In this document: positions 6,323-16,810 of the stretch, one piece after another
Position numbering within the stretch: the first letter of the stretch is position 1
Layout of the letters: each line of letters begins with the position of its first letter
DNA from: Xanthobacter autotrophicus
GTDB lineage: Bacteria > Pseudomonadota > Alphaproteobacteria > Rhizobiales > Xanthobacteraceae
Assembly (NCBI RefSeq): GCF_029991245.1
Contig: NZ_JAIVFO010000013.1
Span: 1 to 49,114 of the forward strand
Reading direction: 5' to 3'
DNA: 49,114 nucleotides
Translations under genes and position numbers: made by a program
Notes under the pieces: model-generated
Database searches by the model: none
Seen by the model: the letters and a program-made list of their open reading frames with translations, nothing else
Told to the model about the DNA's origin: nothing

Positions 6323-8827
6323 CTATTTGTTGAGGCCGGTGGGCGCGGCGGCGGTGGCGGCCTGCGGCGCGGCATCCGCGGGCGCGCCGTGGACCAGCCG
6401 GTCGATGCTCGCCGGCGAGGCCGTGGGCACGCGGCCAGTCTCGATGAAGTCCACCACATCCTGCGCGAATGCCACCGGCTCGTCGGTGTGGATGAAGTGG
6501 GCGGTGCCCGGATAGACCTTCACCCGCACATCCCCGCCCGCCGCATCCATGCGCCGCACGAAGGGCAGGATGAGCTGGCGCGAAAGGTCGTTCAGCCCGT
6601 TGAAGGCATAGCCGGGGATGAACGGCTCCTTGTCGCCGAAGGCGAGGAAGATGGGGATCTTGATGTCCGTGAGCCTTTTGTAGAGGCTCGCCGGGTCCTT
6701 CTCCTGAAGTTCAGCCACCATGGCATAGATGTCGAAGATGAAGACATCCACCCATTGCTGCAATTCGCGCGGATCACCCTTGATCATGCCGATGCGCTGG
6801 GCGGTGTGCAGGCGGGCATATGCGCTGTCGCGCAGGAAATAGCCCGAGCGCTGCGGCTTCACCGCGCCGGTCACCGGATCGCGGCTGCGGAAGTGGAAGA
6901 AATCGTCGATCTGCTGGGCGGTGAGGTTCTTCTCCCGCTCGCGCAGGCCGGTCTTGTCCCAGGTGGCCTTCCACTTGTCGAAGTCGTGGGCATAGGCGGG
7001 ATCGAACAGGTCCAGCTTCAGGCCCGGCGCCACCGTCACCTCGCGGGGATATTCCTCAAGCCCGGCGGGGGCTTCCAGGATCAGCTTGGTCACCGCGTCG
7101 GGCCAGGTGAGGGCATAGCCGAGCACGATCTGCCCGCCCATGGAATGGCCGAGATAGGCAGCCTTTGGCACCTTGAGCTGGTTCACCACCACCTCGTGCA
7201 CCACCTCCCGCATCTCCTGCATGGTGCGGGCGGGGCTCTTGTCCAGGTTGCCGGGGCCGGACATGCCGTAGTGCGGCAGGTCCACGGCGATCACCCGCAG
7301 GCCGCGCTCCAGCGCGATGCGCATGATGTTGCCGTAGTGGCCGCTGAACGCGCCCTTGCCGTGGATGATCACCAGCACGTCCGGGTTGGGCGCGGTGCCG
7401 GCATATTCATCCATGTAGCCGACGTCCCACGCGATCCCGCGTGAGTCCTTGGCCGTGGTCTTCTTCACCGGGAAAGGATAGGTGACGAAAGTGTTCCAGA
7501 ACGACTTGTCCGGCGTGATGTTCGCGGCCACCGAGGGGGTGCGGTAGGTCTTCGCCACCAGGTCGCGGTCGCGGGTGAGGCGCGAGACATCACTGAGGAA
7601 GCCGGCGACGGTGGGGTCGAATTCCCGGTTCTTCAGGATGGAGAACACGCCATAGTGCGCCACCGGGCTCTTCTCATGGACGAAGTCCGCCCCGGGCACG
7701 AGGTCCACCGTGCGCTTGGCCCGGTCGAAGGTGAGCCACTGGTCGTTGTCGATGTGCATCACCAGCGTGCGCGCGGTGATGCGCTTGAGCTGGTCATTGA
7801 TATTGTATTGCTCGCCGGCGCGGTTGCGCCACAGCAGGTCCACCGCATCGAACAGCAGGGCGCGCTTGTTCACGCTGGCGCCGGCCTGGGGCGTGGGCGG
7901 GTTCCAGTAGAACACGTCCGGCTGCACCTTGGCCCAGTCCTGCTGGGAGCGGAACTGGAAGTCGAAGCCGGTGAGCAGCAGCACCGACCAGCCGAAGGCG
8001 ACGCCCTGGTTGGGGTGCTTGTCCCTGGGCAGGTCATAGTAATTGCCGCCGGTGGCCCGCCATTGCGGATCGCTCTCGATGGCCGCCGACATGAGCTGGA
8101 AGGTCCAGTTGCCCACCGGGTCTGCGCCATCCGACTGGCTGGTGCCGCCGATGGGCATGAGGCCGTTCATGAAATCGGGATGCATGACGCCCCAGACATA
8201 GGTCTGCGTCGCCCCCATGGAGGCGCCGGTGACCAGTGCCGCGCGGGCGACCTTCAGGTGGTCGCGCAGCATGCGGTAATTGGCCTGCACCATGTCCTGG
8301 TAGCTGTATTGGGGAAACTTCTGCCCCAGCCCCTCCGACGGCTTGGAGGTGCCCCACAGGCCCAGCGCATCGAGGATGACCACATAATACTGGTTGGTGT
8401 CGATGGCCCGGCCCGGCCCGATCACCGATCCCCCCGACAGGGCGGTGCCCTCCACCCATTGGGCGTACATGTCGGTGGCGTCGCCCGAATAGAAGGAATT
8501 GATGACCACCGCATTGGTGATCTCCCCCGCCGCGTTGCGGATCGGGGTGCCCAGCGCGATGTAGGCGGTCTTCAGCGGACCGGCGCCCAGCGATTCGAGG
8601 GTGGTGCCGCCCTCCCCGCCATTGGCCCATTTTTCAGGGCTGGCGAGGTCGTAGGTGCCGCCGATCCTGAAGTTGCCGATGTCGTAGAAGGTCTTGAGAT
8701 GGCAGAGCCGCTCCTGCGAGCAGGTGGGCGTGATCTTGCGCGGCTCCATCGCGGCCTGGGCCGAAGGGACCTGTGCCAGAGGGACCTGCGCCAGGAGCGC
8801 GAGGCCAAGGGCAAGGACGTATCTCAT
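6323..8827 (-). CDS. Exported protein with two tandem alpha/beta-hydrolase domains
   Basis: 834 residues with an N-terminal signal peptide (MRYVLALGLALLAQVP..., cleavage probable near SAQAA). Two hydrolase domains follow. Domain 1 (about 45-415) resembles the homoserine acetyltransferase (MetX) fold: elbow TGASMGA with Ser203, acid in HIDNDQW (about 359-364) and His in SPVAHYGV (about 391). Domain 2 (about 470-815) has VIIHGKGAFSG, VDLPHYGMSGPG, elbow GHSMGG with Ser562, acid in FGDKEPFIPGY and His in YPGTAHFIHTDEP. Both triads look complete. A short low-complexity Ala/Pro tail follows. Most family members have a single domain of 270-400 residues, so the duplication is unusual. Export implies a periplasmic or secreted esterase-like enzyme; substrate unknown. 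The smaller hydrolase gene lies immediately downstream. Confidence 0.85.
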   Translation of the reverse strand: MRYVLALGLALLAQVPLAQVPSAQAAMEPRKITPTCSQERLCHLKTFYDIGNFRIGGTYDLASPEKWANGGEGGTTLESLGAGPLKTAYIALGTPIRNAAGEITNAVVINSFYSGDATDMYAQWVEGTALSGGSVIGPGRAIDTNQYYVVILDALGLWGTSKPSEGLGQKFPQYSYQDMVQANYRMLRDHLKVARAALVTGASMGATQTYVWGVMHPDFMNGLMPIGGTSQSDGADPVGNWTFQLMSAAIESDPQWRATGGNYYDLPRDKHPNQGVAFGWSVLLLTGFDFQFRSQQDWAKVQPDVFYWNPPTPQAGASVNKRALLFDAVDLLWRNRAGEQYNINDQLKRITARTLVMHIDNDQWLTFDRAKRTVDLVPGADFVHEKSPVAHYGVFSILKNREFDPTVAGFLSDVSRLTRDRDLVAKTYRTPSVAANITPDKSFWNTFVTYPFPVKKTTAKDSRGIAWDVGYMDEYAGTAPNPDVLVIIHGKGAFSGHYGNIMRIALERGLRVIAVDLPHYGMSGPGNLDKSPARTMQEMREVVHEVVVNQLKVPKAAYLGHSMGGQIVLGYALTWPDAVTKLILEAPAGLEEYPREVTVAPGLKLDLFDPAYAHDFDKWKATWDKTGLREREKNLTAQQIDDFFHFRSRDPVTGAVKPQRSGYFLRDSAYARLHTAQRIGMIKGDPRELQQWVDVFIFDIYAMVAELQEKDPASLYKRLTDIKIPIFLAFGDKEPFIPGYAFNGLNDLSRQLILPFVRRMDAAGGDVRVKVYPGTAHFIHTDEPVAFAQDVVDFIETGRVPTASPASIDRLVHGAPADAAPQAATAAAPTGLNK

Positions 8828-9216: not shown

Positions 9217-9729
9217 TCAGCCGCGGCCGGCCCGCAGCAGCGCGAGCAGGCCGGTCAGCAGCGCCACCGGCGTCGGCGGGCAGCCGGGAATGCGAAGGTC
9301 CACCGGAACGATGGCCTCCACGCCCCCGGCGCAGGCATAGCCGCCGGCGAAGACGCCGCCGTTGATGGCGCAGTCTCCCGCCGCCACCACCCATTTGGGC
9401 GCGGGCGTGGCGTCATAGGTGCGTTTCAGCGCCTCGGCCATGGTCTTGGCCACCGGCCCGGTCACCAGCAGCACGTCCGCATGGCGCGGCGAGGCGACCA
9501 CATGCAGGCCGAAGCGCTCCAGATCATAGAAGGCGTTGCCCAGCGCATGGATTTCCAGCTCGCAGCCATTGCACGAGCCGGCATCCACCTCGCGGATGGA
9601 GAGGCTGCGCCCCAGCCGCGCGCGCGCCGCCGCATTCAGCTCGGCGGCGAGCTTGTCCACCGCCACATCTTCCGGGGCCGGCTCCGTGAGGGGGGCTTTC
9701 AACAGCCCTTGGAGGAGAAGCTTGCGCAT
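9217..9729 (-). CDS. hyfI: Small Fe-S subunit of a hydrogenase-4-like (Ehr) complex, NuoB/HyfI family
   Basis: 170 residues, homologous to NuoB of complex I and HycG/HyfI of group 4 hydrogenases. It sits on the cytoplasmic side and carries the [4Fe-4S] cluster next to the large subunit. Four candidate ligands are intact: Cys53 and Cys56 in GSCNGCELEI, Cys120 in GDCAINGG and Cys150 in PGCPPTP. The start is ATG 9729, just after the hyfG stop at 9738; a longer frame reading through hyfG is an artefact. It is the last gene of the leftward operon. Normally a HyfH/NuoI ferredoxin gene lies between G and I, but here they are directly adjacent. The retained cluster beside a large subunit that lacks Ni ligands suggests a redox role other than H2 chemistry (inference). 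Confidence 0.9.
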   Translation of the reverse strand: MRKLLLQGLLKAPLTEPAPEDVAVDKLAAELNAAARARLGRSLSIREVDAGSCNGCELEIHALGNAFYDLERFGLHVVASPRHADVLLVTGPVAKTMAEALKRTYDATPAPKWVVAAGDCAINGGVFAGGYACAGGVEAIVPVDLRIPGCPPTPVALLTGLLALLRAGRG

Positions 9730-9737
9730 GGCGGCTC

Positions 9738-11243
9738 CTAGAGATCCACGCCCGAATAGGAGCAGTTGAAGGATTTGTTGCAGAGGGGGAAGTCGGCGAC
9801 GATGTTGCCCTCGATGGCGGTTTCCAGAAGCGGCCACTGGAACCAGGACGGGTCGCGCAGGTGCGCCCGCCGCACACGCCCGTCCGCCTCCAGCGCCACG
9901 AAGGCGAGCACGTCGCCGCGGAAGCCCTCCACCACCGCGAGGCCCTCCCCGGGACCCGGCGGGACTTCGGTCGCGACCGGCCCGGCCGGCAGGGTGTCGA
10001 GCAGCCGCACAATGAGGCCCAGGCTCTCCTCCACCTCGCGGATGCGCACCCACACCCGCGCATTCACGTCGCCCTCGGTCCGCACCACCACCTCGAACGG
10101 CAGGCGGTCATAGGGCGGATAGGCAAGGACCCGCCGCGCGTCGAAAGGACGGCCGGAGGCGCGGCCCACGAAGCCGCCGGCACCGAACTGGCGGACATAA
10201 TCCGGCCGGGTGAAGCCGGTGCCCACGGTGCGGTCCTGCAACGAGGCGGTGTTGTCGTAAAGCTCCACCAGCGCCGGGAAGGCCGCGCGCACCTCGGACA
10301 CCAGCACGCGGATAGACGAGACGCCCTCCCGCGCCAGATCCCCCGCCACCCCGCCGGGGATGACGCCATCCATCATCAGGCGATGGCCGAAGGCGCGGGC
10401 ACAGACCCGCAGCACCTTCTCGCGCAGCACGCCGCAATGGGCCAGCATCAGCGCGAAGGCGGCGTCGTTGCAGATGGCGCCGATGTCGCCGAGATGGTTG
10501 GCGAGGCGCTCCAGCTCCGCCATCACCCCGCGCAGGGCATGGGCCCGCGCCGGCACGCTCACCCCCCGCGCCGCCTCCACCGCGCGGCAGAAGGCCAGCG
10601 CATAGGCCACCGTGCTGTCGCCGGACTGGCGCCCGGCAAGCCGCGCCGCCTGCGCCACGTCGGCGCCGGCCATGAGGCCCTCGATGCCCTTGTGGACGTA
10701 GCCGAGCCGCGCCTCCAGCCGCACCACTGTCTCGCCGTAGCAGGAGAAGCGGAAATGGCCGGGCTCGATGATGCCGGCATGGACCGGACCCACCGGGATC
10801 TGGTGCAGCCCCTCCCCTTCCGCCGCGAGGAAGGGATAAGCGTCGCCCTCAGGTTCCGCCGGCAGGTTCGCCCCCAGCGGATGGCGCACGCCCCAGCGGC
10901 CGTGATCGAGCCAGGGGCGATCGTCGGGCGCGCCCTCGGGCACGAGGCCGTAGAGGTCGCGCACCGTGCGCTCCAGCCGCGCCGCCGGCGGGTGATGGCG
11001 CGCCACCGAGGGGAAGGCACCGCCGACGCTGGCACAGGTGGCCACGGCCAGCCGGCCGGACGCCTCGTCCAGCAGCGCCATGTGCACCGCGCCCGCATCG
11101 CCCCACAGGCCCATGAGCACCAGGTCGCCCGCCGCCAGATGTTCGGCGAGGGTGGTCCACTGTTCCGCGCTCACCTGCGCGCGCGGAAAGGGCCGGCAGG
11201 GGCCGGCGCGGCCACTTTCCAGAAGCTGTGCGAAGGCTTGCAT
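9738..11243 (-). CDS. hyfG: Large subunit of a hydrogenase-4-like complex lacking the Ni-Fe ligands, NuoCD/HyfG family
   Basis: 501 residues. Residues 1-130 are NuoC-like (ERTVRDLYGLVPEGAPDDRPW) and 145-501 NuoD/HycE-like (IPVGPVHAGIIEPGHFRF, GYVHKGIEGLM, MAELERLANHLGDIGAI, DRTVGTGFTRPDYVRQFGAG). In true group 4 hydrogenases two CxxC pairs bind Ni-Fe: a CGIC motif after the 'YVH+G' segment and a C-terminal DPCYSC. Here the first site reads RLAGRQSGDS (201-210) with no Cys. The C-terminus reads LCNKSFNCSYSGVDL, with single Cys488 and Cys494 that do not form a CxxC. A Ni-Fe centre therefore looks impossible, so this is probably an Ehr-type subunit, not an active hydrogenase. The gene starts about 110 bases after hyfF, separated by palindromic repeats, the only gap in an otherwise overlapping operon. 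Confidence 0.9.
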   Translation of the reverse strand: MQAFAQLLESGRAGPCRPFPRAQVSAEQWTTLAEHLAAGDLVLMGLWGDAGAVHMALLDEASGRLAVATCASVGGAFPSVARHHPPAARLERTVRDLYGLVPEGAPDDRPWLDHGRWGVRHPLGANLPAEPEGDAYPFLAAEGEGLHQIPVGPVHAGIIEPGHFRFSCYGETVVRLEARLGYVHKGIEGLMAGADVAQAARLAGRQSGDSTVAYALAFCRAVEAARGVSVPARAHALRGVMAELERLANHLGDIGAICNDAAFALMLAHCGVLREKVLRVCARAFGHRLMMDGVIPGGVAGDLAREGVSSIRVLVSEVRAAFPALVELYDNTASLQDRTVGTGFTRPDYVRQFGAGGFVGRASGRPFDARRVLAYPPYDRLPFEVVVRTEGDVNARVWVRIREVEESLGLIVRLLDTLPAGPVATEVPPGPGEGLAVVEGFRGDVLAFVALEADGRVRRAHLRDPSWFQWPLLETAIEGNIVADFPLCNKSFNCSYSGVDL

Positions 11244-11314: not shown

Positions 11315-11360
11315 GCTAGAGCATATTTCGCAAACTTCAGTTCGCGAAATATGCTCTAGC
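11315..11360. repeat. Perfect 17-bp inverted repeat overlapping the hyfF stop codon
   Basis: Left arm GCTAGAGCATATTTCGC (11315-11331) and its exact complement at 11344-11360, with a 12-base loop that contains a further AAC/GTT stem. The right arm includes the hyfF stop codon. In mRNA this forms a very stable hairpin between hyfF and hyfG; it could pause or partly stop transcription or protect the upstream message from decay. No T-run follows, so a simple terminator is not indicated. The CTAGAGCA start is shared with the adjacent repeat. Confidence 0.8.
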
Positions 11361-12813
11361 CCAGAAGCCCGGCCACGTGCCGGAACCACGCCACCAGAGG
11401 CGGCGGCAGATAGAGCCCGGCCACCAGCACCAGGGCGAGATGCACTGTCATGGGCAGATGGCTCGCCTTCACCTTGTCGGTGCCGGGGCTGGGCGCGCCG
11501 AAGGCGATGCCGGAAAGCTTCACCATCAACGCGCCGAAGGCGAGGAGCAGTCCGGCCACCAGCGGCAGCGCGAGCCACGGCCGGTGCGCGAAGGCGGAGG
11601 TCACCAGCAGGAACTCGCTCATGAACACGCCGGCCGGCGGCAGGCCGGCGATGGCCGCCACCGCCACCACGAGGCCCCAGCCCAGCGCCGGATGGGAGGT
11701 GGTGAGCCCACGGATGTCGGCGAGCTTCTGCGTGCCCTTCACCTGGCACACATGGCCCACCGCGAAGAAGATGGCCGATTTGGTGAGGCTGTGCATGGTC
11801 ATGTGCAGCAGCCCGGCGAAATTGGCCACAGGCCCGCCGAGCCCGAAGGCGAAGGCGATGAGGCCCATGTGCTCGATGGAGGAATAGGCGAACAGCCGCT
11901 TGATGTCCCGCCGCCGGTACAGCATGAAGCCGGCGAGCAGCAGCGAGGCGAGGCCCATGGCCATCATCAGCGGCCCCGGCGCCAGCGTGCCGGGATGGGC
12001 CGCCATCAAGAGCTTGAAGCGCAGCACCGCATAGAGCGCCACGTTGAGCAGCAGCCCCGAGAGAACCGCCGAGATGGGGGTGGGGCCTTCCGAATGGGCG
12101 TCGGGCAGCCAGGCATGGAGCGGGGCAAGGCCCACCTTGGTGCCGTAGCCCAGCAGCAGGAACACGAAGGCGACATTGAGCAGCGCCGGGTCGAAATTGC
12201 GCGCGTGCTGCATCAGCACGCTCCAGACCATGGCGTCCGGCCCCTCGCCCACCACCGGCTGGGCCACCATGTAGACCAGGATGGTGCCGAACAAGGCGAG
12301 CGCGATGCCCACCGAGCCCAGCATGAAATATTTCCACGCCGCCTCGATGGCCGCCTCGGTTCGATAAAGCCCCACCATCAGCACCGTGGTCAGTGTCGCC
12401 ACCTCGATGGCCACCCACATGACGCCGAGATTGTTGGAGACGAGCGCCAGGGTCATGGCCGCCAGCAGTACCTGGTACATGGCGTGGTAGAAGCGCAAAT
12501 GCAGCGGCGTGAGGCGCCCGGTCTCCAGTTCGTGGGCGATGTAGCTTGCCGAGAAGACGCTGGTGGTGAAGGCCACGAAGGTGTTCAGCACCACGAACAC
12601 GATATTGAGGTCGTCCACGATGAGGAACGGCCCGGCGACGCGCGGCGCCACCAGCAGGGACAGGGCCGTGAGGAACGTGAGGGCGCAGGCGCCCACATTG
12701 AGCGCGGCCGAGACGCGATAGGACGGGATCAGCGCCAGCAGCACCGCCGCGACCGCCGGAATGGCGAGGATGACCGGCGCGGGATTGAACGGCAGCGTCG
12801 CGAGGACGGTCAT
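11356..12813 (-). CDS. hyfF: Antiporter-like membrane subunit, NuoL/M/N / HyfF family
   Basis: 485 residues, almost entirely transmembrane helices, of the Mrp-antiporter-like family that forms proton channels in complex I and group 4 hydrogenases. Key polar residues are kept: Glu in VAIEVATLTTVLMVGLYRT, Lys in GYGTKVGLAPLHAWLPDAH, and Lys in HSLTKSAIFFAVGHV. The discontinuous-helix motif LPDAHSEGPTPISAVLSG is also present. ATG 12813 overlaps the hyfE stop by four bases (ATGA), indicating translational coupling. The stop codon lies inside a perfect inverted repeat. The conserved channel residues argue that ion translocation is retained even though the catalytic subunit has changed. Confidence 0.92.
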   Translation of the reverse strand: MTVLATLPFNPAPVILAIPAVAAVLLALIPSYRVSAALNVGACALTFLTALSLLVAPRVAGPFLIVDDLNIVFVVLNTFVAFTTSVFSASYIAHELETGRLTPLHLRFYHAMYQVLLAAMTLALVSNNLGVMWVAIEVATLTTVLMVGLYRTEAAIEAAWKYFMLGSVGIALALFGTILVYMVAQPVVGEGPDAMVWSVLMQHARNFDPALLNVAFVFLLLGYGTKVGLAPLHAWLPDAHSEGPTPISAVLSGLLLNVALYAVLRFKLLMAAHPGTLAPGPLMMAMGLASLLLAGFMLYRRRDIKRLFAYSSIEHMGLIAFAFGLGGPVANFAGLLHMTMHSLTKSAIFFAVGHVCQVKGTQKLADIRGLTTSHPALGWGLVVAVAAIAGLPPAGVFMSEFLLVTSAFAHRPWLALPLVAGLLLAFGALMVKLSGIAFGAPSPGTDKVKASHLPMTVHLALVLVAGLYLPPPLVAWFRHVAGLLG

Positions 12814-13490
12814 GCGCGCCCTCCCCGGAAGCGGTCGAGGGCGTCCACGTCCACGGTGTCGAACCGCTCGCGGATGCGGAACAGGAAGATGCCGATGACG
12901 ATGAAGGCGATGAGCACCGAGAAGGCCACCGAGATTTCCACCACCAGCGGCATGCCCTTGGCCCCCGTGGCGGCGAGGATCAGGCCGTTCTCCAGCGACA
13001 TGAAGCCCACCACCTGGCTCACCGCGTTGCGGCGCGTGACCATCATCAGGAGGCCCAGCAGCACCACCGAGAGGGCGAAGGCGAGGTCCTCCCGCGCCAG
13101 CGCGTCGGCGGCGGGGGTGGCCTTGAGCATCACCACCATGGAGAGGGCGACGAGGGCGATGCCGGCCAGCATGGTGGGGCCGATGGACACCGCCGTCTCC
13201 ACCTGCCGGTGGATGCCGAGCCGCGCCACCATGCGATGCAGCGCCACCGGGATCACCAGCGCCTTGAATACGAGGGCGATGCCCGCCGTCACGTACAGGT
13301 GCGGCGCATCCTGGGCATAGGCCTGCCACGCCACCGCGAGCGCCAGCGCCACCGCCTGCAGGGCGAAGACGTTCAGCAGCGCATAGAGCCGGTCCTGGTA
13401 GAGCATCAGGAAGGAGATGAGCACCAGCGCGCCCGCGAACATGTGGGCCACGTCGAAGACGAGGTTGGGGGTGATGGCGTGCTCGATCAT
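12810..13490 (-). CDS. hyfE: HyfE-type membrane subunit (NuoK-like)
   Basis: 226 residues with about six to seven hydrophobic helices, matching the HyfE family, whose C-terminal half resembles NuoK. Features include MLYQDRLYALLNVFALQAVALA near the N-terminus and MMVTRRNAVSQVVGFMSLENG (about residues 140-160), where the Glu in a membrane helix corresponds to a NuoK proton-path residue. It ends with a cytoplasmic basic/acidic tail (FRIRERFDTVDVDALDRFRG). ATG 13490 shares one base with the hyfC stop and its own stop overlaps the hyfF start. It probably helps connect the antiporter modules in the membrane arm. Confidence 0.88.
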   Translation of the reverse strand: MIEHAITPNLVFDVAHMFAGALVLISFLMLYQDRLYALLNVFALQAVALALAVAWQAYAQDAPHLYVTAGIALVFKALVIPVALHRMVARLGIHRQVETAVSIGPTMLAGIALVALSMVVMLKATPAADALAREDLAFALSVVLLGLLMMVTRRNAVSQVVGFMSLENGLILAATGAKGMPLVVEISVAFSVLIAFIVIGIFLFRIRERFDTVDVDALDRFRGGRA

Positions 13491-14443
13491 CACAGGATCC
13501 CCGACACGAAGAGCAGCAGCGTGCCCAGCAGCCCGAGCATGAGCGCCGCGCCGAGGAAGTCCGGCACGCGGAACACCCGCATCTTGGCGATGGAGGTCTC
13601 GAACACGGCGACGAGCAGCGCGCCCACGGCGAGCTTGCCCCCATAGCTCACGAGGCCCAGCGCCATCCCGGGGACACCCGCCCCCACCGGGGCGAGGCCC
13701 CACGGCACGAACACGCAAGCGACCAGGGAGAGGAACAGCAGCAGCTTCAGCTGCGCCGCCAATTCGATCAACGCCAGATGGCGGCCGGAATATTCCAGCA
13801 CCATGGCCTCGTGCACCATGGTCAGCTCCAGGTGGGTGGAGGGATTGTCCACCGGGATGCGGCCGTTTTCCGCCACCGCCACCATCAGCAGCGCCACCAG
13901 AGCCAGCGCCAGCGAGACCCGCAGGCCCACCCCCGCCAGCATCACCGAGGCGATGGTGGAGAGCTGGGTGGAATGGGCGACCAGGGCGAGGGCGAACACG
14001 ATCATGATCATGGCCGGCTCGGCCAGCGAGGAGATCATCACCTCCCGGCTCGATCCGAGGCCGCCGAAGCTGGTGCCCACATCCATGCCGGCCAGCGCCA
14101 GGAAGAAGCGGGCCGAGCCGATCAGGGCGGTGATGGCGATGAGGTCCGCCGTCCAGGAGAAGATCAGCCCGGTGGCAAAGGTGGGCACCAGCGCCGCCGC
14201 CACCCAGGTGGCCGCGAACACCAGATAGGGCACCACCCGGAACAGCCAGGAGGCGTTCTGCGCCAGCACCACCTCCTTGCGCAGCAGCCGGACGAGGTCG
14301 CGATAGGGCTGGAGCACGCTGGCGCCCCGCCGGCGCTGGAGGCGCGCCTTGGCCTTGCGCACCAGCCCGGTGAGCAGCGGGGCGAGGGCGAGCACAAGCA
14401 GCATCTGCGTGCCCTGCACCAGGATGTGCGCCATCAGGTCCAT
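13490..14443 (-). CDS. hyfC: HyfC-type membrane anchor subunit (NuoH-like)
   Basis: 317 residues with about eight transmembrane helices, of the NuoH/HyfC family, which anchors the hydrophilic arm and lines the quinone or redox-coupling cavity. Seen motifs: LLTGLVRKAKARLQRRRGAS and LQPYRDLVRLLRKE (N-terminal cytoplasmic loop), SLAEPAMI, and VAENGRIPVDNPSTHLELTM with VHEAMVLEYSG, the acidic loop conserved in HyfC/HycD. ATG 14443 lies 10 bases inside the end of hyfB, so translation is probably coupled. The acidic coupling loop is intact, supporting a working ion-translocating unit. Confidence 0.92.
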   Translation of the reverse strand: MDLMAHILVQGTQMLLVLALAPLLTGLVRKAKARLQRRRGASVLQPYRDLVRLLRKEVVLAQNASWLFRVVPYLVFAATWVAAALVPTFATGLIFSWTADLIAITALIGSARFFLALAGMDVGTSFGGLGSSREVMISSLAEPAMIMIVFALALVAHSTQLSTIASVMLAGVGLRVSLALALVALLMVAVAENGRIPVDNPSTHLELTMVHEAMVLEYSGRHLALIELAAQLKLLLFLSLVACVFVPWGLAPVGAGVPGMALGLVSYGGKLAVGALLVAVFETSIAKMRVFRVPDFLGAALMLGLLGTLLLFVSGIL

Positions 14444-16479
14444 AGGGCGAGCACCAGAAGCAGCAGCACCAGGGCCGAGAAGACGAGGCCCAGATACTGG
14501 CGGATGGTGAGGTATTGCAGCGTGTTCGCCCGCTCGGCCACATATCCCACCGCCGCCGTCAGCGGCAGGAACAGGAAGGCCCAGGCCGGGTCGCGCGCGC
14601 TGGAGGAGAAGCGGGCCGGGGTGAGCGCGCCGGGGGGCGGCATCTCCACCTTCTCGCGCGCCGCGAACAGGCCGCGGGCGAACACCCGGCGGATGGGCTG
14701 GGCGAACGAGGCGGCGGAATATTGCGCCAGCGGGCTGGCATTGGGGAAGCCGCAATCCCACGGCGGCGCCCGCCGCACCGCCCGCGAGGCGAAGCGGTGG
14801 ATGGCGACCGCGGCCAGCAGCGCCGACAGCGCCGTGAAGGCAAACACCAGCAGCCCGTTATAGGAGCTGCGGCTCTCCGCCACCGGGATGATGGAGAGCC
14901 ACGCCACGGAGCCCTGCGCCGGCATGGTCTCGCCCACGAGACCCCCCACCGCCGGCTGCAGCGCATCGATGACGAAGCCGGGCAGCAGGCCGGCGAGCAC
15001 GCACGTTGCCGCAAGCGCGATCATGGCGGCGCGGGAGAAGGCGTCCACCTCTTGGGCCCCGGCGGCCATGGGGCTGCGCGGCCGGCCGAGGAAGGCGACG
15101 CCGTAGAGCCGCACGAAGCAGGCGGCGGCGAGCGCTGCGGCCAGCGCCATCAGCGCGCCCACGGCCGGCACCATCAGCTTCAGACCCCAGGCCGGCAGGT
15201 CCGGGCTCAGCAGCACCGCCTGGAACACCAGCCATTCGGAGGCGAAGCCGTTGAGCGGCGGCAGGGCCGAGATGGCGGCGCAGCCGATCAGCATCACCAC
15301 GGCGGTAGCAGGCATGCGGTGGATGAGGCCGCCCAGTTCGTCCATCTGCCGGGTTCCGGTGGCGGTGAGCACCGCGCCTGCGCCGAAGAACAAGAGGCTC
15401 TTCATGGCCGCATGGTTGAGCACATGGAACAGGGCGGCGGTGAGCGCCAGCGCGGCGGCGGCGGGAAAGCCGTTGGCCGAGAAGGCGAGCGCCAGCCCGA
15501 GGCCAATGAAGATGAGGCCGATATTCTCGATAGTCGAGTAGGCCAGCACCCGCTTGGTATCTCCCTGCAACAGCGCCTGCAGCACGCCGATGACAGCCGC
15601 AATGCCTCCCGCCGCCAGCACCGGAATACCCCACCACCAGTCCGGCGGGCCGGACAGATCGAACACGATGCGGATGAAGCCGTAGACCGCCACCTTGGTC
15701 ATCACCCCGCTCATGAGGGCGGAGACGTGGCTGGGCGCGGCGGGATGGGCCAAAGGCAGCCAGACATGCAGCGGCACGAGGCCCGCCTTGGAGCCGGCGC
15801 CCAGCATGGCAAGGGTCAGAACCAGCGCGGCGAAGGCCCCCACGGGGGGCGCCTCGCGCATGGCATCGAAGGCATAGCCGCCCCCGGAGCCGGCGGCGAG
15901 CAGGCCGAAGGCCAGCATCAGCGCCAGCGTGCCGAAGGACGCCATGAGGATATAGACGAGGCCGGCGCGCACATTGCCCGCCTCCTTGTCGTGGGCCACC
16001 ACCAGCGCCCAGGACGCCAGCGACATGAATTCCCACGACAGGAGGAAGCTGTAGGCGTCGTCCGCCAGCAGCACCATGTTCATGCCGGCGAGGAAGGCCG
16101 GGAAGAACGGCAGCACCCGTTCCGGCGCATGATCGTGCCGGCCGTAGCCGAGGCCATAGAGGCTGGCCGCCGCGCCGCCGAGATTGATGACGGCGAGGAA
16201 GACCGCCGACAGCGCATCGAGCCGCAGGTGCGTGCCGATCCAGGGAATGCCCAAGGGCAGCACCATACCGGCAGCCGGCGCCGCAATGGCGGTGAGGGCC
16301 GAGAGGCCGGCCACCAGCGTCACCGCCAGCGCGCCGCCATAGATCAGGGGCCGGCCCGCAGGGCGGTGAGCGCTCGCCACACCGAGCGCGGCGAGGGCCA
16401 GCAGCGCCGCCACCGCGCCGAGGGCAACGAGGAGGTGTCCGCTCGGGGGAAGCTGCGCGGCGAAGGCGGCCTCGGGCAT
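14434..16479 (-). CDS. hyfB: Antiporter-like membrane subunit, NuoL / HyfB family
   Basis: 681 residues with about 16 transmembrane helices. NuoL-like features: SWEFMSLASWALVVAH (channel Glu), GAGSKAGLVPLHVWLPLAHP (Lys), MSGVMTKVAVYGFIRI, AYSTIENIGLIFIGLG and HVLNHAAMKSLLFFGAGAV (Lys). The C-terminal extension (PPWDCGFPNASPLAQYSAAS) is typical of HyfB. ATG 16479 was chosen because GGAGGAG, lying at the end of the upstream xre gene, is well placed; the gap to the xre stop is only 4 bases. It is the first structural gene of the complex and is clearly co-transcribed with the regulator. Confidence 0.93.
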   Translation of the reverse strand: MPEAAFAAQLPPSGHLLVALGAVAALLALAALGVASAHRPAGRPLIYGGALAVTLVAGLSALTAIAAPAAGMVLPLGIPWIGTHLRLDALSAVFLAVINLGGAAASLYGLGYGRHDHAPERVLPFFPAFLAGMNMVLLADDAYSFLLSWEFMSLASWALVVAHDKEAGNVRAGLVYILMASFGTLALMLAFGLLAAGSGGGYAFDAMREAPPVGAFAALVLTLAMLGAGSKAGLVPLHVWLPLAHPAAPSHVSALMSGVMTKVAVYGFIRIVFDLSGPPDWWWGIPVLAAGGIAAVIGVLQALLQGDTKRVLAYSTIENIGLIFIGLGLALAFSANGFPAAAALALTAALFHVLNHAAMKSLLFFGAGAVLTATGTRQMDELGGLIHRMPATAVVMLIGCAAISALPPLNGFASEWLVFQAVLLSPDLPAWGLKLMVPAVGALMALAAALAAACFVRLYGVAFLGRPRSPMAAGAQEVDAFSRAAMIALAATCVLAGLLPGFVIDALQPAVGGLVGETMPAQGSVAWLSIIPVAESRSSYNGLLVFAFTALSALLAAVAIHRFASRAVRRAPPWDCGFPNASPLAQYSAASFAQPIRRVFARGLFAAREKVEMPPPGALTPARFSSSARDPAWAFLFLPLTAAVGYVAERANTLQYLTIRQYLGLVFSALVLLLLVLALWT

Positions 16480-16483
16480 GGCC

Positions 16484-16810
16484 CTACTCCTCCCCCGGCA
16501 AGGGCCGGCTGGCAAGGGGCCCGGGAGAGGGTGCCGGAGAAGAGGGCGCCGGAGAAGAGGGCACTTGTGCCCGCAGCCGCACGCCCCGCCCTCCGGCCTC
16601 GCTGACGGCCCCTTCGCCGATAAGCTCGATGCCCGCCGCCTCCAGCCCGCCCACGAGCTTCATGAGCGAATCCACGTTGCCGCGGATGACGCCGTCGCTG
16701 GCTTCCATGCGCTGGATGGTGGGCAGGGACAGGCCGCTCAGGGCCGCGAGGGCGCGCTGATCGAGGCCGAGAATGGCACGGGCGGCGCGAAGCTGGGCGG
16801 CTGTGATCAT
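16484..16810 (-). CDS. Small XRE-family (Cro/CI) regulator at the head of the hyf-like operon
   Basis: 108 residues. Residues 4-60 form a helix-turn-helix (LRAARAILGLDQRALAALSG, then LSLPTIQRMEAS), followed by LVGGLEAAGIELIGEG and GGRGVRLR, a C-terminal pattern common in small rhizobial XRE regulators. The last 25 residues are a Ser/Pro repeat tail (SSPAPSSPAPSPGP) with no fold. Its stop is 4 bases from hyfB, whose ribosome site lies within the xre coding end, so the regulator is part of the operon. A palindromic site 67-95 bases upstream (16877-16905) could be its own operator, giving autoregulation of the whole complex. That link is inferred from position only. Confidence 0.82.
   Translation of the reverse strand: MITAAQLRAARAILGLDQRALAALSGLSLPTIQRMEASDGVIRGNVDSLMKLVGGLEAAGIELIGEGAVSEAGGRGVRLRAQVPSSPAPSSPAPSPGPLASRPLPGEE

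What the first reader, a model, noticed from the sequence alone, without database searches (positions are those of the whole stretch)
9738..11243. Hydrogenase-4-like large subunit that has lost the Ni-Fe site
Sequence shows a normal NuoCD/HycE-type protein in which the first ligand motif (CGIC in HycE) is replaced by RLAGRQSGDS at 201-210, and the C-terminal DPCYSC by NCSYSG with unpaired Cys488/Cys494. The neighbouring small subunit keeps all four cluster cysteines and the membrane subunits keep their channel Glu/Lys residues. Known background: 'energy-converting hydrogenase-related' (Ehr) complexes share this loss and their reaction is unknown. Inference: this complex couples an unidentified redox or ligand reaction to ion transport.
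Basis: partly seen in the sequence, partly recalled or inferred. Interest (0 to 1): 0.82.

Follow-up and report, generated by a model that had tools for sequence, protein, structure and literature searches.

The report
Nickel-free Hyq relative of complex I
The gene encodes the large subunit of a membrane complex called Hyq, which looks like a cut-down respiratory complex I that has lost its nickel-iron hydrogenase site; the loss was already reported in 2012, and what the complex really does is still an open question.

Summary
Observation correct; the gene is on the minus strand (11243 to 9738). The four Ni-Fe cysteines of E. coli HycE (C241, C244, C531, C534) align with S207, S210, S495, G498.

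It is HyqG of a hyqRBCEFGI operon, known from Azorhizobium caulinodans and Xanthobacter autotrophicus. Sprecher et al. 2012 already reported that HyqG lacks both CxxC motifs and has three conserved cysteines.

Added here:
- 26 of 50 Hyq genomes lack HypD; none of those 26 has HypE over cut-off. A Hyp-built Ni-Fe cofactor is excluded there.
- 22 of 50 lack NifD (by cut-off; one has a likely fragment) and HypD.
- Two complex I quinone ligands (His, Tyr) are Ile and Gly.
- The cysteines are not universal: one is missing in 5 of 99, all three in two betaproteobacterial relatives.
- No sigma-54 site before 66 of 66 hyq operons.

Best reading: a nickel-free, single-cluster, redox-coupled ion pump with its own pocket and an unknown substrate. 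Published deletion phenotypes point to H2, so a nickel-free hydrogenase is not excluded.

The parts
16484..16810 (-). hyqR: small XRE-type helix-turn-helix regulator (108 aa), first gene of the operon
   Evidence: Pfam HTH_31 and HTH_3 just below their cut-offs; the best relative lies within 1 kb upstream of hyqB in 52 of 65 loci with enough flank and just downstream of hyqI in 6 more, and those six also show an XRE-family ORF upstream; the A. caulinodans operon is hyqRBCEFGI
14434..16488 (-). hyqB: HyfB/NuoL-like proton-conducting subunit (684 aa)
   Evidence: NCBIfam hydrogenase 4 subunit B NF005086, 867 bits against a cut-off of 667
13490..14437 (-). hyqC: HyfC/NuoH-like membrane anchor (315 aa)
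   Evidence: Pfam PF00146 NADHdh, 134 bits
12810..13487 (-). hyqE: HyfE-like membrane subunit (225 aa)
   Evidence: NCBIfam hydrogenase 4 membrane subunit NF008556, 80.5 bits, under its cut-off of 136
11356..12816 (-). hyqF: HyfF/NuoM-like proton-conducting subunit (486 aa)
   Evidence: NCBIfam hydrogenase 4 subunit F NF005043, 877 bits against a cut-off of 533
9738..11243 (-). hyqG: NuoCD/HycE-type large subunit without Ni-Fe ligands (501 aa); the finding
   Evidence: Best PDB relative 7z0s_E (HycE) by sequence, E 9.6e-56, and by fold, TM-score 0.85 over the model; alignments
9217..9741 (-). hyqI: NuoB/HycG-type small subunit with one [4Fe-4S] site, CxxC plus two Cys (174 aa)
   Evidence: Pfam Oxidored_q6, 112 bits; best PDB relative 7z0s_G; four ligand Cys each in 97 of 98

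Best explanation
This is the HyqG subunit of a Hyq complex (HyqBCEFGI). Four membrane subunits form an ion-translocating arm (HyqB and HyqF antiporter-like, HyqE, and the anchor HyqC). HyqG and HyqI form a cytoplasmic head with one [4Fe-4S] cluster. The pocket that holds Ni-Fe in hydrogenases and the quinone headgroup in complex I keeps neither ligand set: it is built from GPVHAGIIEPGH, R-x-SGDS, CND and DFPLCNKSFNCSYSG. Most likely a small redox substrate (a quinone held differently, or another small acceptor or donor) reacts in this pocket with electrons from the HyqI cluster. The cluster would be fed by, or feed, a soluble carrier that docks directly, because the operon encodes no ferredoxin-like subunit. 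The reaction is coupled through HyqC to ion movement in HyqB and HyqF, and can run either way. Shown here by sequence: operon, intact channel residues, single cluster site in the operon, absence of Ni-Fe ligands, occurrence without Hyp genes. Inferred: redox turnover, coupling, soluble carrier. Unknown: the substrate. The published H2 phenotypes would then be indirect, or due to a special use in diazotrophs. My separate estimates: identity as Hyq 0.97, not a Ni-Fe enzyme 0.97, redox-coupled ion pump about 0.6.
For: Operon order Xre-B-C-E-F-G-I, all six core genes seen in 67 of 80 loci. Four Ni-Fe Cys positions carry no Cys, in any of the 99 sequences. HypD absent from 26 of 50 Hyq genomes, and none of these 26 has HypE over its cut-off. 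In a sample of 199 genomes of the order, 10 of 19 Hyq genomes lack both HypD and NifD over cut-off, all 10 listed as at least 93% complete. Glu/Lys/His of HyqB and HyqF conserved. HyqI keeps the hydrogenase-type CxxC with the same loop length as HycG. An ORF with a ferredoxin-like CxxCxxCxxxC motif lies within 3 kb of the operon, as far as flank is held, in 2 of 80 loci. E160 (HycE E193) and D260 (E. coli NuoCD D325) are both kept, a mixed pocket. Precedent: the MBS complex also lacks the Nqo4 H38/Y87 pair and uses the pocket for another substrate (passages of PMC7684303).
Against: I found no biochemistry of a purified Hyq complex in the papers seen. In A. caulinodans the H2 phenotypes are strong: nodules of the hup hyq double mutant evolve 27.0 units of H2 against 0.32 for the hup single mutant, which is hard to explain as indirect. 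HypD, like NifD, is over-represented among Hyq genomes of the 199 sample (9 of 19 against 42 of 180, Fisher p 0.03, relatedness not corrected). Redox turnover is assumed from homology; with no electron-input subunit the head might not turn over at all. The 138-185 and 481-501 stretches of the model, which hold pocket residues, are below pLDDT 50, so pocket geometry is untested.
Confidence: 0.6

Rival explanations
1. Hyq is a genuine but nickel-free H2:quinone oxidoreductase: a new hydrogenase active site in the HyqG pocket oxidises H2 from nitrogenase, and evolves H2 at very low O2.
For: A. caulinodans genetics from one laboratory: hyq deletion raises H2 evolution about 15-fold at 20 uM O2; at under 1 uM O2, hup mutants evolve 61,000 with hyq and 14,000 without; only the hup hyq double mutant releases much H2 in nodules. 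The authors state that a complete hup/hyp deletion keeps full H2 recycling and that Rhodocista centenaria SW, which has hyq but no hup/hyp, recycles H2 (data not presented). Using the paper's 135 fg protein per cell and my assumption of 16% N, at least about 1,000 pmol H2 per 10^9 cells per min must arise in the double mutant, against 540 seen: about half, so its H2 loss is of the right order. NifD is over-represented with Hyq: 9 of 19 Hyq genomes against 23 of 180 others, Fisher p 0.0007, relatedness not corrected.
Against: C488 is lost in 3 of 99 and C494 in 2 of 99, and C258, C488 and C494 are all absent in the betaproteobacterial relatives L123 and L127 with the same six genes, so no cysteine metal site is general to the wider family. 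31 of 50 Hyq genomes have no NifD over cut-off, 30 if a fragment in L075 is counted; uptake of outside H2 would still be possible there. The 2012 paper says no cell-free H2 uptake assay was at hand; no complementation was found in the term searches of the 2009 and 2010 papers.
Confidence: 0.17
2. Hyq works without redox turnover: HyqBCEF is a proton or cation exchanger (Mrp-like) and HyqGI is a structural or ligand-sensing head.
For: No electron-input subunit in the operon; Ni-Fe ligands and the quinone His/Tyr gone; antiporter residues intact.
Against: The four cluster cysteines of HyqI are each kept in 97 of 98 sequences, and 23 of the 24 HyqG positions checked hold one residue in at least 97 of 99 sequences (the other, C488, in 96), as expected for a catalytic site.
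Confidence: 0.17
3. Hyq is an ordinary group 4 [NiFe]-hydrogenase with unusual metal ligands.
For: Described as such in 2009; sequence and fold are closest to HycE among solved structures; HypD is somewhat over-represented with Hyq.
Against: No cysteine at any of the four ligand positions; 26 of 50 Hyq genomes lack HypD, and none of these has HypE over cut-off. The 2012 authors themselves call a Ni,Fe site uncertain, if not unlikely.
Confidence: 0.02

Closest known systems
Hyq 'endo-hydrogenase' of Azorhizobium caulinodans (hyqRBCEFGI; PMC2650096, PMC2930871, PMC3357923)
   Same: Same seven genes in the same order; no CxxC in HyqG; the three family cysteines (A. caulinodans C258, C491, C497; here C258, C488, C494); HyqI with CxxC plus two Cys; X. 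autotrophicus Py2 XAUT0165-0171 named as an ortholog
   Different: No NifA box or sigma-54 site found in the 350 bases before the window operon, unlike A. caulinodans
Ehr (energy-converting hydrogenase-related) complexes
   Same: Group 4-like large subunit without Ni-Fe ligands, antiporter-like subunits, function unknown (passages); in Geobacter sulfurreducens the Ehr subunits were more abundant on formate (passages)
   Different: Three other Ehr-type large subunits (L103, L128, L130) have a different pocket, ending in SFGLT(M/I)(A/S)G, and no C488/C494; Hyq is one clade within this group
E. coli formate hydrogenlyase HycE / hydrogenase-4 HyfG
   Same: NuoCD-type fusion, 31-32% identity, HycE best fold match, E193 and R478 kept
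   Different: All four Ni-Fe Cys replaced; canopy D529 is N493; counterparts of HyfA, HyfD, HyfH and HyfJ absent from the operon
Respiratory complex I (NuoD/NuoB)
   Same: Fold, antiporter-like arm, D260 at the NuoCD D325 position
   Different: Quinone ligands His and Tyr are Ile159 and Gly208; no NuoE/F/G/I counterparts in the operon; HyqI has CxxC, not the tandem CC of NuoB
MBS sulfane sulfur reductase (Pyrococcus furiosus)
   Same: Ni-Fe site lost and Nqo4 H38/Y87 absent (passages)
   Different: MBS keeps two of the four Cys and its proximal cluster has only three Cys ligands through a 3-residue shorter loop; Hyq keeps none of the four and has a four-Cys site of the HycG length
Mycobacterium tuberculosis Rv0082-Rv0087 'hyc' operon
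   Same: Six genes of similar kinds next to a regulator gene, listed as hydrogenase-like (passages)
   Different: Not compared by sequence here; its pocket residues were not examined

Membership tests
Hyq (hyqRBCEFGI) | Seven-gene order R-B-C-E-F-G-I on one strand | tested here: met
   Window 16810 down to 9217, minus strand
Hyq (hyqRBCEFGI) | HyqG without CxxC motifs, with three conserved Cys | tested here: met
   C258, C488, C494 present in the window; family 99/99, 96/99, 97/99; published definition
Hyq (hyqRBCEFGI) | HyqI with CxxC plus two further cluster Cys | tested here: met
   C57, C60, C124, C154
Hyq (hyqRBCEFGI) | NifA/sigma-54 promoter (reported trait of the A. caulinodans operon, not defining) | tested here: not met
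   Window: neither. Family: no sigma-54 match before 66 of 66 operons and a NifA-box match before 5 of 66. Control: the same patterns find both with nif-like spacing in L117 and L122, 2 of 6 stretches beside nifD; L121 has both but 419 bases apart, L120 a NifA box only, L118 and L119 (261 and 338 bases) nothing
Hyq (hyqRBCEFGI) | H2 uptake and evolution phenotype | not testable with these tools
   Published data seen for A. caulinodans
Group 4 [NiFe]-hydrogenase | Four Ni-Fe cysteine ligands | tested here: not met
   S207, S210, S495, G498
Group 4 [NiFe]-hydrogenase | Presence with Hyp maturation genes | tested here: not met
   HypD in 24 of 50 Hyq genomes; HypE over cut-off in 0 of the 26 without HypD. 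The window's own genome does have HypD
Ehr | Group 4-like large subunit without Ni-Fe ligands | tested here: met
Ehr | Groups with other large subunits lacking the Ni-Fe Cys rather than with HyfG/HycE | tested here: met
   21-row clade, support 100/99, 28-row tree with midpoint root; the program warns of long branches
Ehr | Subunit composition in the original definition | not tested
   The paper I recall as defining Ehr (Marreiros 2013) is not held
Respiratory complex I | Quinone-headgroup His and Tyr in NuoD | tested here: not met
   I159 and G208, each in 99 of 99
MBS sulfane sulfur reductase | Three-Cys proximal cluster with shortened loop | tested here: not met
   Full CxxC of HycG length,

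The most novel reading that the evidence does not exclude
Hyq is a nickel-free, Hyp-independent, membrane-bound and reversible H2:quinone oxidoreductase. That would be a new hydrogenase active-site type, sitting in a complex I pocket built from SGDS, CND and NKSFNCSYSG.
Probability: 0.14. Interest if true: 0.95.

Novelty: new member of a known kind. Interest (0 to 1): 0.5.

Why it matters
Three papers from one laboratory assign H2 oxidation and evolution to a complex whose sequence has no Ni-Fe ligands. The genome surveys here sharpen that conflict. Many Hyq bearers show no HypD or HypE and no NifD, and close relatives lack the cysteines that could have formed another site. So either biology has another hydrogenase chemistry, or a widespread aerobic complex I relative has been misnamed and its real reaction is unknown. 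Rhizobium johnstonii 3841 (NifD present, no HypD, no HypE over cut-off) is a natural strain in which to decide.

Tried and rejected
Rejected: a frameshift or sequencing artefact (the motif is shared by 99 of 99 sequences). Rejected: a hidden second CxxC pair (no Cys at the ligand positions; the family cysteines are C258, C488, C494). Rejected as a general explanation: recycling of nitrogenase H2 (19 of 50 Hyq genomes have NifD over cut-off). Weakened: a cysteine-ligated new metal site or a C488-C494 disulfide (single losses in L008, L040, L092, L094, L096; all three Cys absent in L123 and L127). Not supported: MBS-type catalysis by an open cluster iron (HyqI loop of HycG length).

Led nowhere: conserved neighbours other than hyqR. 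No other flanking gene family was found in more than 11 loci of 80 plus the window, apart from one 24-locus group that, on reading the sequences, I take for chained ABC-transporter matches (no family search of these was run). The structure model covered HyqG alone, from 57 of the 81 sequences at hand (window and 56 of 80 loci), and two stretches with pocket residues have pLDDT below 50, so no cavity could be judged. Literature on Hyq: a search for at least two of hyq, Azorhizobium and hydrogenase gave 58 papers, of which the 25 listed include three that study Hyq; a later search listed six papers, the same three and three others. I did not see the co-occurrence and relative-based tests of this report in those papers; the library is open-access only.

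The 99-sequence alignment is not de-duplicated. The co-occurrence test used 50 of the 80 loci because the tool takes at most 50; completeness is not given for these, and many are metagenome assemblies. The 50 and the 199 genomes may overlap. In L075 a short NifD piece at a contig start (model positions 380-466, 158.6 bits) suggests a cut nifD; it was counted as absent because it is under the cut-off, and counting it would give NifD in 20 of 50 and neither gene in 21 of 50. HypE was sought only in the 26 HypD-negative genomes. L065 shows a 36-residue match to the HypE C-terminus and may hold a broken or badly assembled hyp cluster. Weak HypE matches occur in all 26 genomes, all under the cut-off; the same search rings in 14 of 14 controls with 4 over the cut-off. 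Among the 10 Hyq genomes of the 199 sample without NifD and HypD, listed contamination reaches 9%. Operon starts for the promoter scan are the first start codons of the open frames, so some may be misplaced.

Papers: PMC2650096 abstract, Introduction, part of the Results, sections 6-9 and term passages; PMC3357923 parts 1-4 of 5; PMC2930871, PMC6349859, PMC10284858, PMC10432482, PMC7894505, PMC9474812, PMC7684303, PMC3087520 and PMC6901956 passages only; figures not seen, legends only. The promoter patterns (NifA box, sigma-54) and the Marreiros 2013 reference are recalled.
Full report
Observation. The ORF is real, on the minus strand from 11243 to 9738, 501 aa with an ATG start. It matches Complex1_49kDa (137 bits) and Complex1_30kDa (34 bits) over their cut-offs and NiFeSe_Hases (23.6 bits) just below its cut-off. 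The stated motifs are at the stated residues. Its best solved relative is HycE of E. coli formate hydrogenlyase, by sequence (7z0s_E, E 9.6e-56) and by fold (TM-score 0.85 over the model). Aligned with E. coli references, the four Ni-Fe cysteines HycE C241, C244, C531 and C534 fall on S207, S210, S495 and G498.

What it is. The gene is the sixth of a compact seven-gene operon on the minus strand: a small XRE regulator, then HyfB-, HyfC-, HyfE-, HyfF-, HyfG- and HyfI-like genes. Compared with the E. coli hyf operon, the counterparts of hyfA, hyfD, hyfH and hyfJ are missing from it. The nearest named relative found is Xanthobacter oligotrophicus (94% identity). All six core genes were seen in 67 of the 80 fetched loci; several of the rest are cut by contig ends. 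The best match to the regulator lies within 1 kb upstream of the B gene in 52 of 65 loci with enough flank, and just downstream of the I gene in 6 more; those six also have an XRE-family ORF upstream.

It already has a name. Azorhizobium caulinodans carries the same operon, hyqRBCEFGI, described in 2009 as an 'endo-hydrogenase' (PMC2650096), with an ortholog reported in Xanthobacter autotrophicus Py2. The 2012 paper (PMC3357923) states that HyqG proteins from eight genera lack both CxxC motifs, that three cysteines (A. caulinodans C258, C491, C497) are conserved instead, and that a Ni,Fe site is 'uncertain, if not unlikely'. The legend of its alignment figure lists X. autotrophicus.

What genetics says. 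In A. caulinodans, deleting hyq slows diazotrophic growth (doubling time 8.8 h against 7.2 h) and hardly affects growth on ammonium. It raises H2 evolution about 15-fold at 20 uM O2. Below 1 uM O2 a hup mutant evolves 61,000 pmol per 10^9 cells per min with hyq and 14,000 without. In nodules the hup hyq double mutant releases 27.0 units of H2, against 0.30-0.36 for wild type and single mutants. From the paper's 135 fg protein per cell and my assumed 16% nitrogen, at least about 1,000 pmol H2 must arise in the double mutant at its growth rate, against 540 measured: about half, so the loss is of the right order. These data are serious. They come from one laboratory; the 2012 paper says no cell-free H2 uptake assay was at hand, and term searches found no complementation in the 2009 and 2010 papers.

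Test 1: is nickel chemistry possible? HypD was sought in 50 of the 80 Hyq-bearing genomes: 24 have it and 26 do not. None of those 26 has HypE over its cut-off (HypE was not sought in the other 24). In a sample of 199 genomes from the window's order, 19 carry Hyq (E at or below 1e-160); 9 have both HypD and NifD and 10 have neither over cut-off. All 10 are listed as at least 93% complete, with contamination up to 9%. The residues at the four ligand positions do not depend on HypD: none of the 99 sequences has Cys there. A Hyp-built Ni-Fe cofactor is therefore excluded in about half of the sampled genomes, as far as the assemblies are complete. Against this, HypD is over-represented with Hyq in the 199 sample: 9 of 19 against 42 of 180, Fisher p 0.03. 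The window's own genome has both NifD and HypD.

Test 2: is it about nitrogen fixation? NifD over its cut-off occurs in 19 of 50 Hyq genomes, and 22 of 50 have neither NifD nor HypD. One of the 22, L075, holds a likely NifD fragment at a contig start, which would make it 20 and 21. This goes against the 2010 statement that hyq is absent from non-diazotrophs generally. NifD is nevertheless over-represented: 9 of 19 Hyq genomes against 23 of 180 others, Fisher p 0.0007, uncorrected for relatedness. The NifA/sigma-54 promoter reported for A. caulinodans was not found: 0 of 66 operons have a sigma-54 match and 5 of 66 a NifA-box match in the 350 bases upstream. As a control, the same patterns find both with nif-like spacing in 2 of 6 stretches beside nifD (L117, L122); L121 has both 419 bases apart, L120 a NifA box only, and L118 and L119, which are only 261 and 338 bases long, neither. 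A. caulinodans itself was not among the fetched loci.

Test 3: the pocket. Complex I binds the quinone headgroup with a His and a Tyr (Nqo4 H38 and Y87, passages of PMC7684303). Their counterparts here (E. coli NuoCD H224 and Y273 in this record's numbering) are I159 and G208. Kept are E160 (the HycE E193 position), D260 (the NuoCD D325 position) and R442 (HycE R478); the canopy aspartate HycE D529 is N493 in 99 of 99 (roles of these HycE residues from passages of PMC9474812). HyqI has a CxxC loop of the same length as HycG, unlike MBS, whose proximal cluster has only three cysteine ligands. So at these residues Hyq is neither hydrogenase-type, complex I-type nor MBS-type.

Test 4: the three cysteines. 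C258 is shared with HycE (C292) and with the Ehr-type proteins of L103 and L128, so it is not special to Hyq. C488 is lost in 3 of 99 and C494 in 2 of 99. Relatives in plasmid records of Cupriavidus metallidurans and Paraburkholderia phymatum, 46% identical and with the same six genes, lack all three but keep NKSFN, YAG and HDL at the C-terminus. An Allomeiothermus silvanus relative (39%) also lacks them. A cysteine-bound metal site cannot be the common catalytic core of this wider group. It could still be special to the Hyq clade with the cysteines.

Phylogeny. In a 28-row tree, Hyq, the two betaproteobacterial proteins, Allomeiothermus and three other Ehr-type proteins form one clade without Ni-Fe ligands (support 100/99), beside HyfG/HycE/Azospirillum Hyf; Hyq is nested inside. 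The root is a midpoint for drawing only, and the program warns of long branches, among them Allomeiothermus and NuoD. This fits one loss of the Ni-Fe site in this branch.

How it most likely works. Conserved Glu, Lys and His residues in both antiporter-like subunits and an intact cluster site argue for a redox-coupled ion pump. No ferredoxin-like gene accompanies the operon: an ORF with such a motif lies within 3 kb, as far as flank is held, in 2 of 80 loci, and both look doubtful as partners. The single cluster would therefore exchange electrons directly with a soluble carrier and with the pocket substrate. I take a nickel-free redox reaction in the remodelled pocket, coupled to ion movement, as most likely; the substrate remains open. 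A nickel-free hydrogenase is the boldest reading that the evidence does not exclude.

Verdict. Observation confirmed; already published for the family; a new member of a known kind. The value lies in the conflict it exposes, and in the genome evidence that removes nickel and nitrogen fixation as general explanations.

Noticed in passing
window 6323-8827, minus strand: An 834-aa protein just downstream of the operon matches MetX-like hydrolases in its N-terminal half (within about 85-412) and alpha/beta hydrolases (Abhydrolase_1) in its C-terminal half (484-783): two hydrolase domains in one chain.
   Followed up: no
   Followed up: partly
L126 1198-10392: Azospirillum lipoferum 4B carries an energy-converting hydrogenase operon with intact DPCISC whose upstream genes are an aldehyde ferredoxin oxidoreductase and a ubiquitin-like small modifier protein.
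   Followed up: no
L014, L031, L049, L054, L058, L066, L068, L070: In these Bradyrhizobium loci an XRE-family ORF lies downstream of hyqI on the opposite strand, in seven of the eight in addition to one upstream, next to a gene of about 250 aa that looked methyltransferase-like on reading; no family search was run.
   Followed up: no
G240 (genome of L065), contig C38 62471-62578: A 36-residue match to the HypE C-terminus in a genome otherwise without HypD and without HypE over cut-off: a possible remnant or assembly break of a hyp cluster.
   Followed up: no
L124 2464-11138: Allomeiothermus silvanus plasmid pMESIL01 carries a six-gene Hyq/Ehr-like operon about 1.2 kb downstream of an ArsR-family regulator gene, outside Proteobacteria.
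   Followed up: partly
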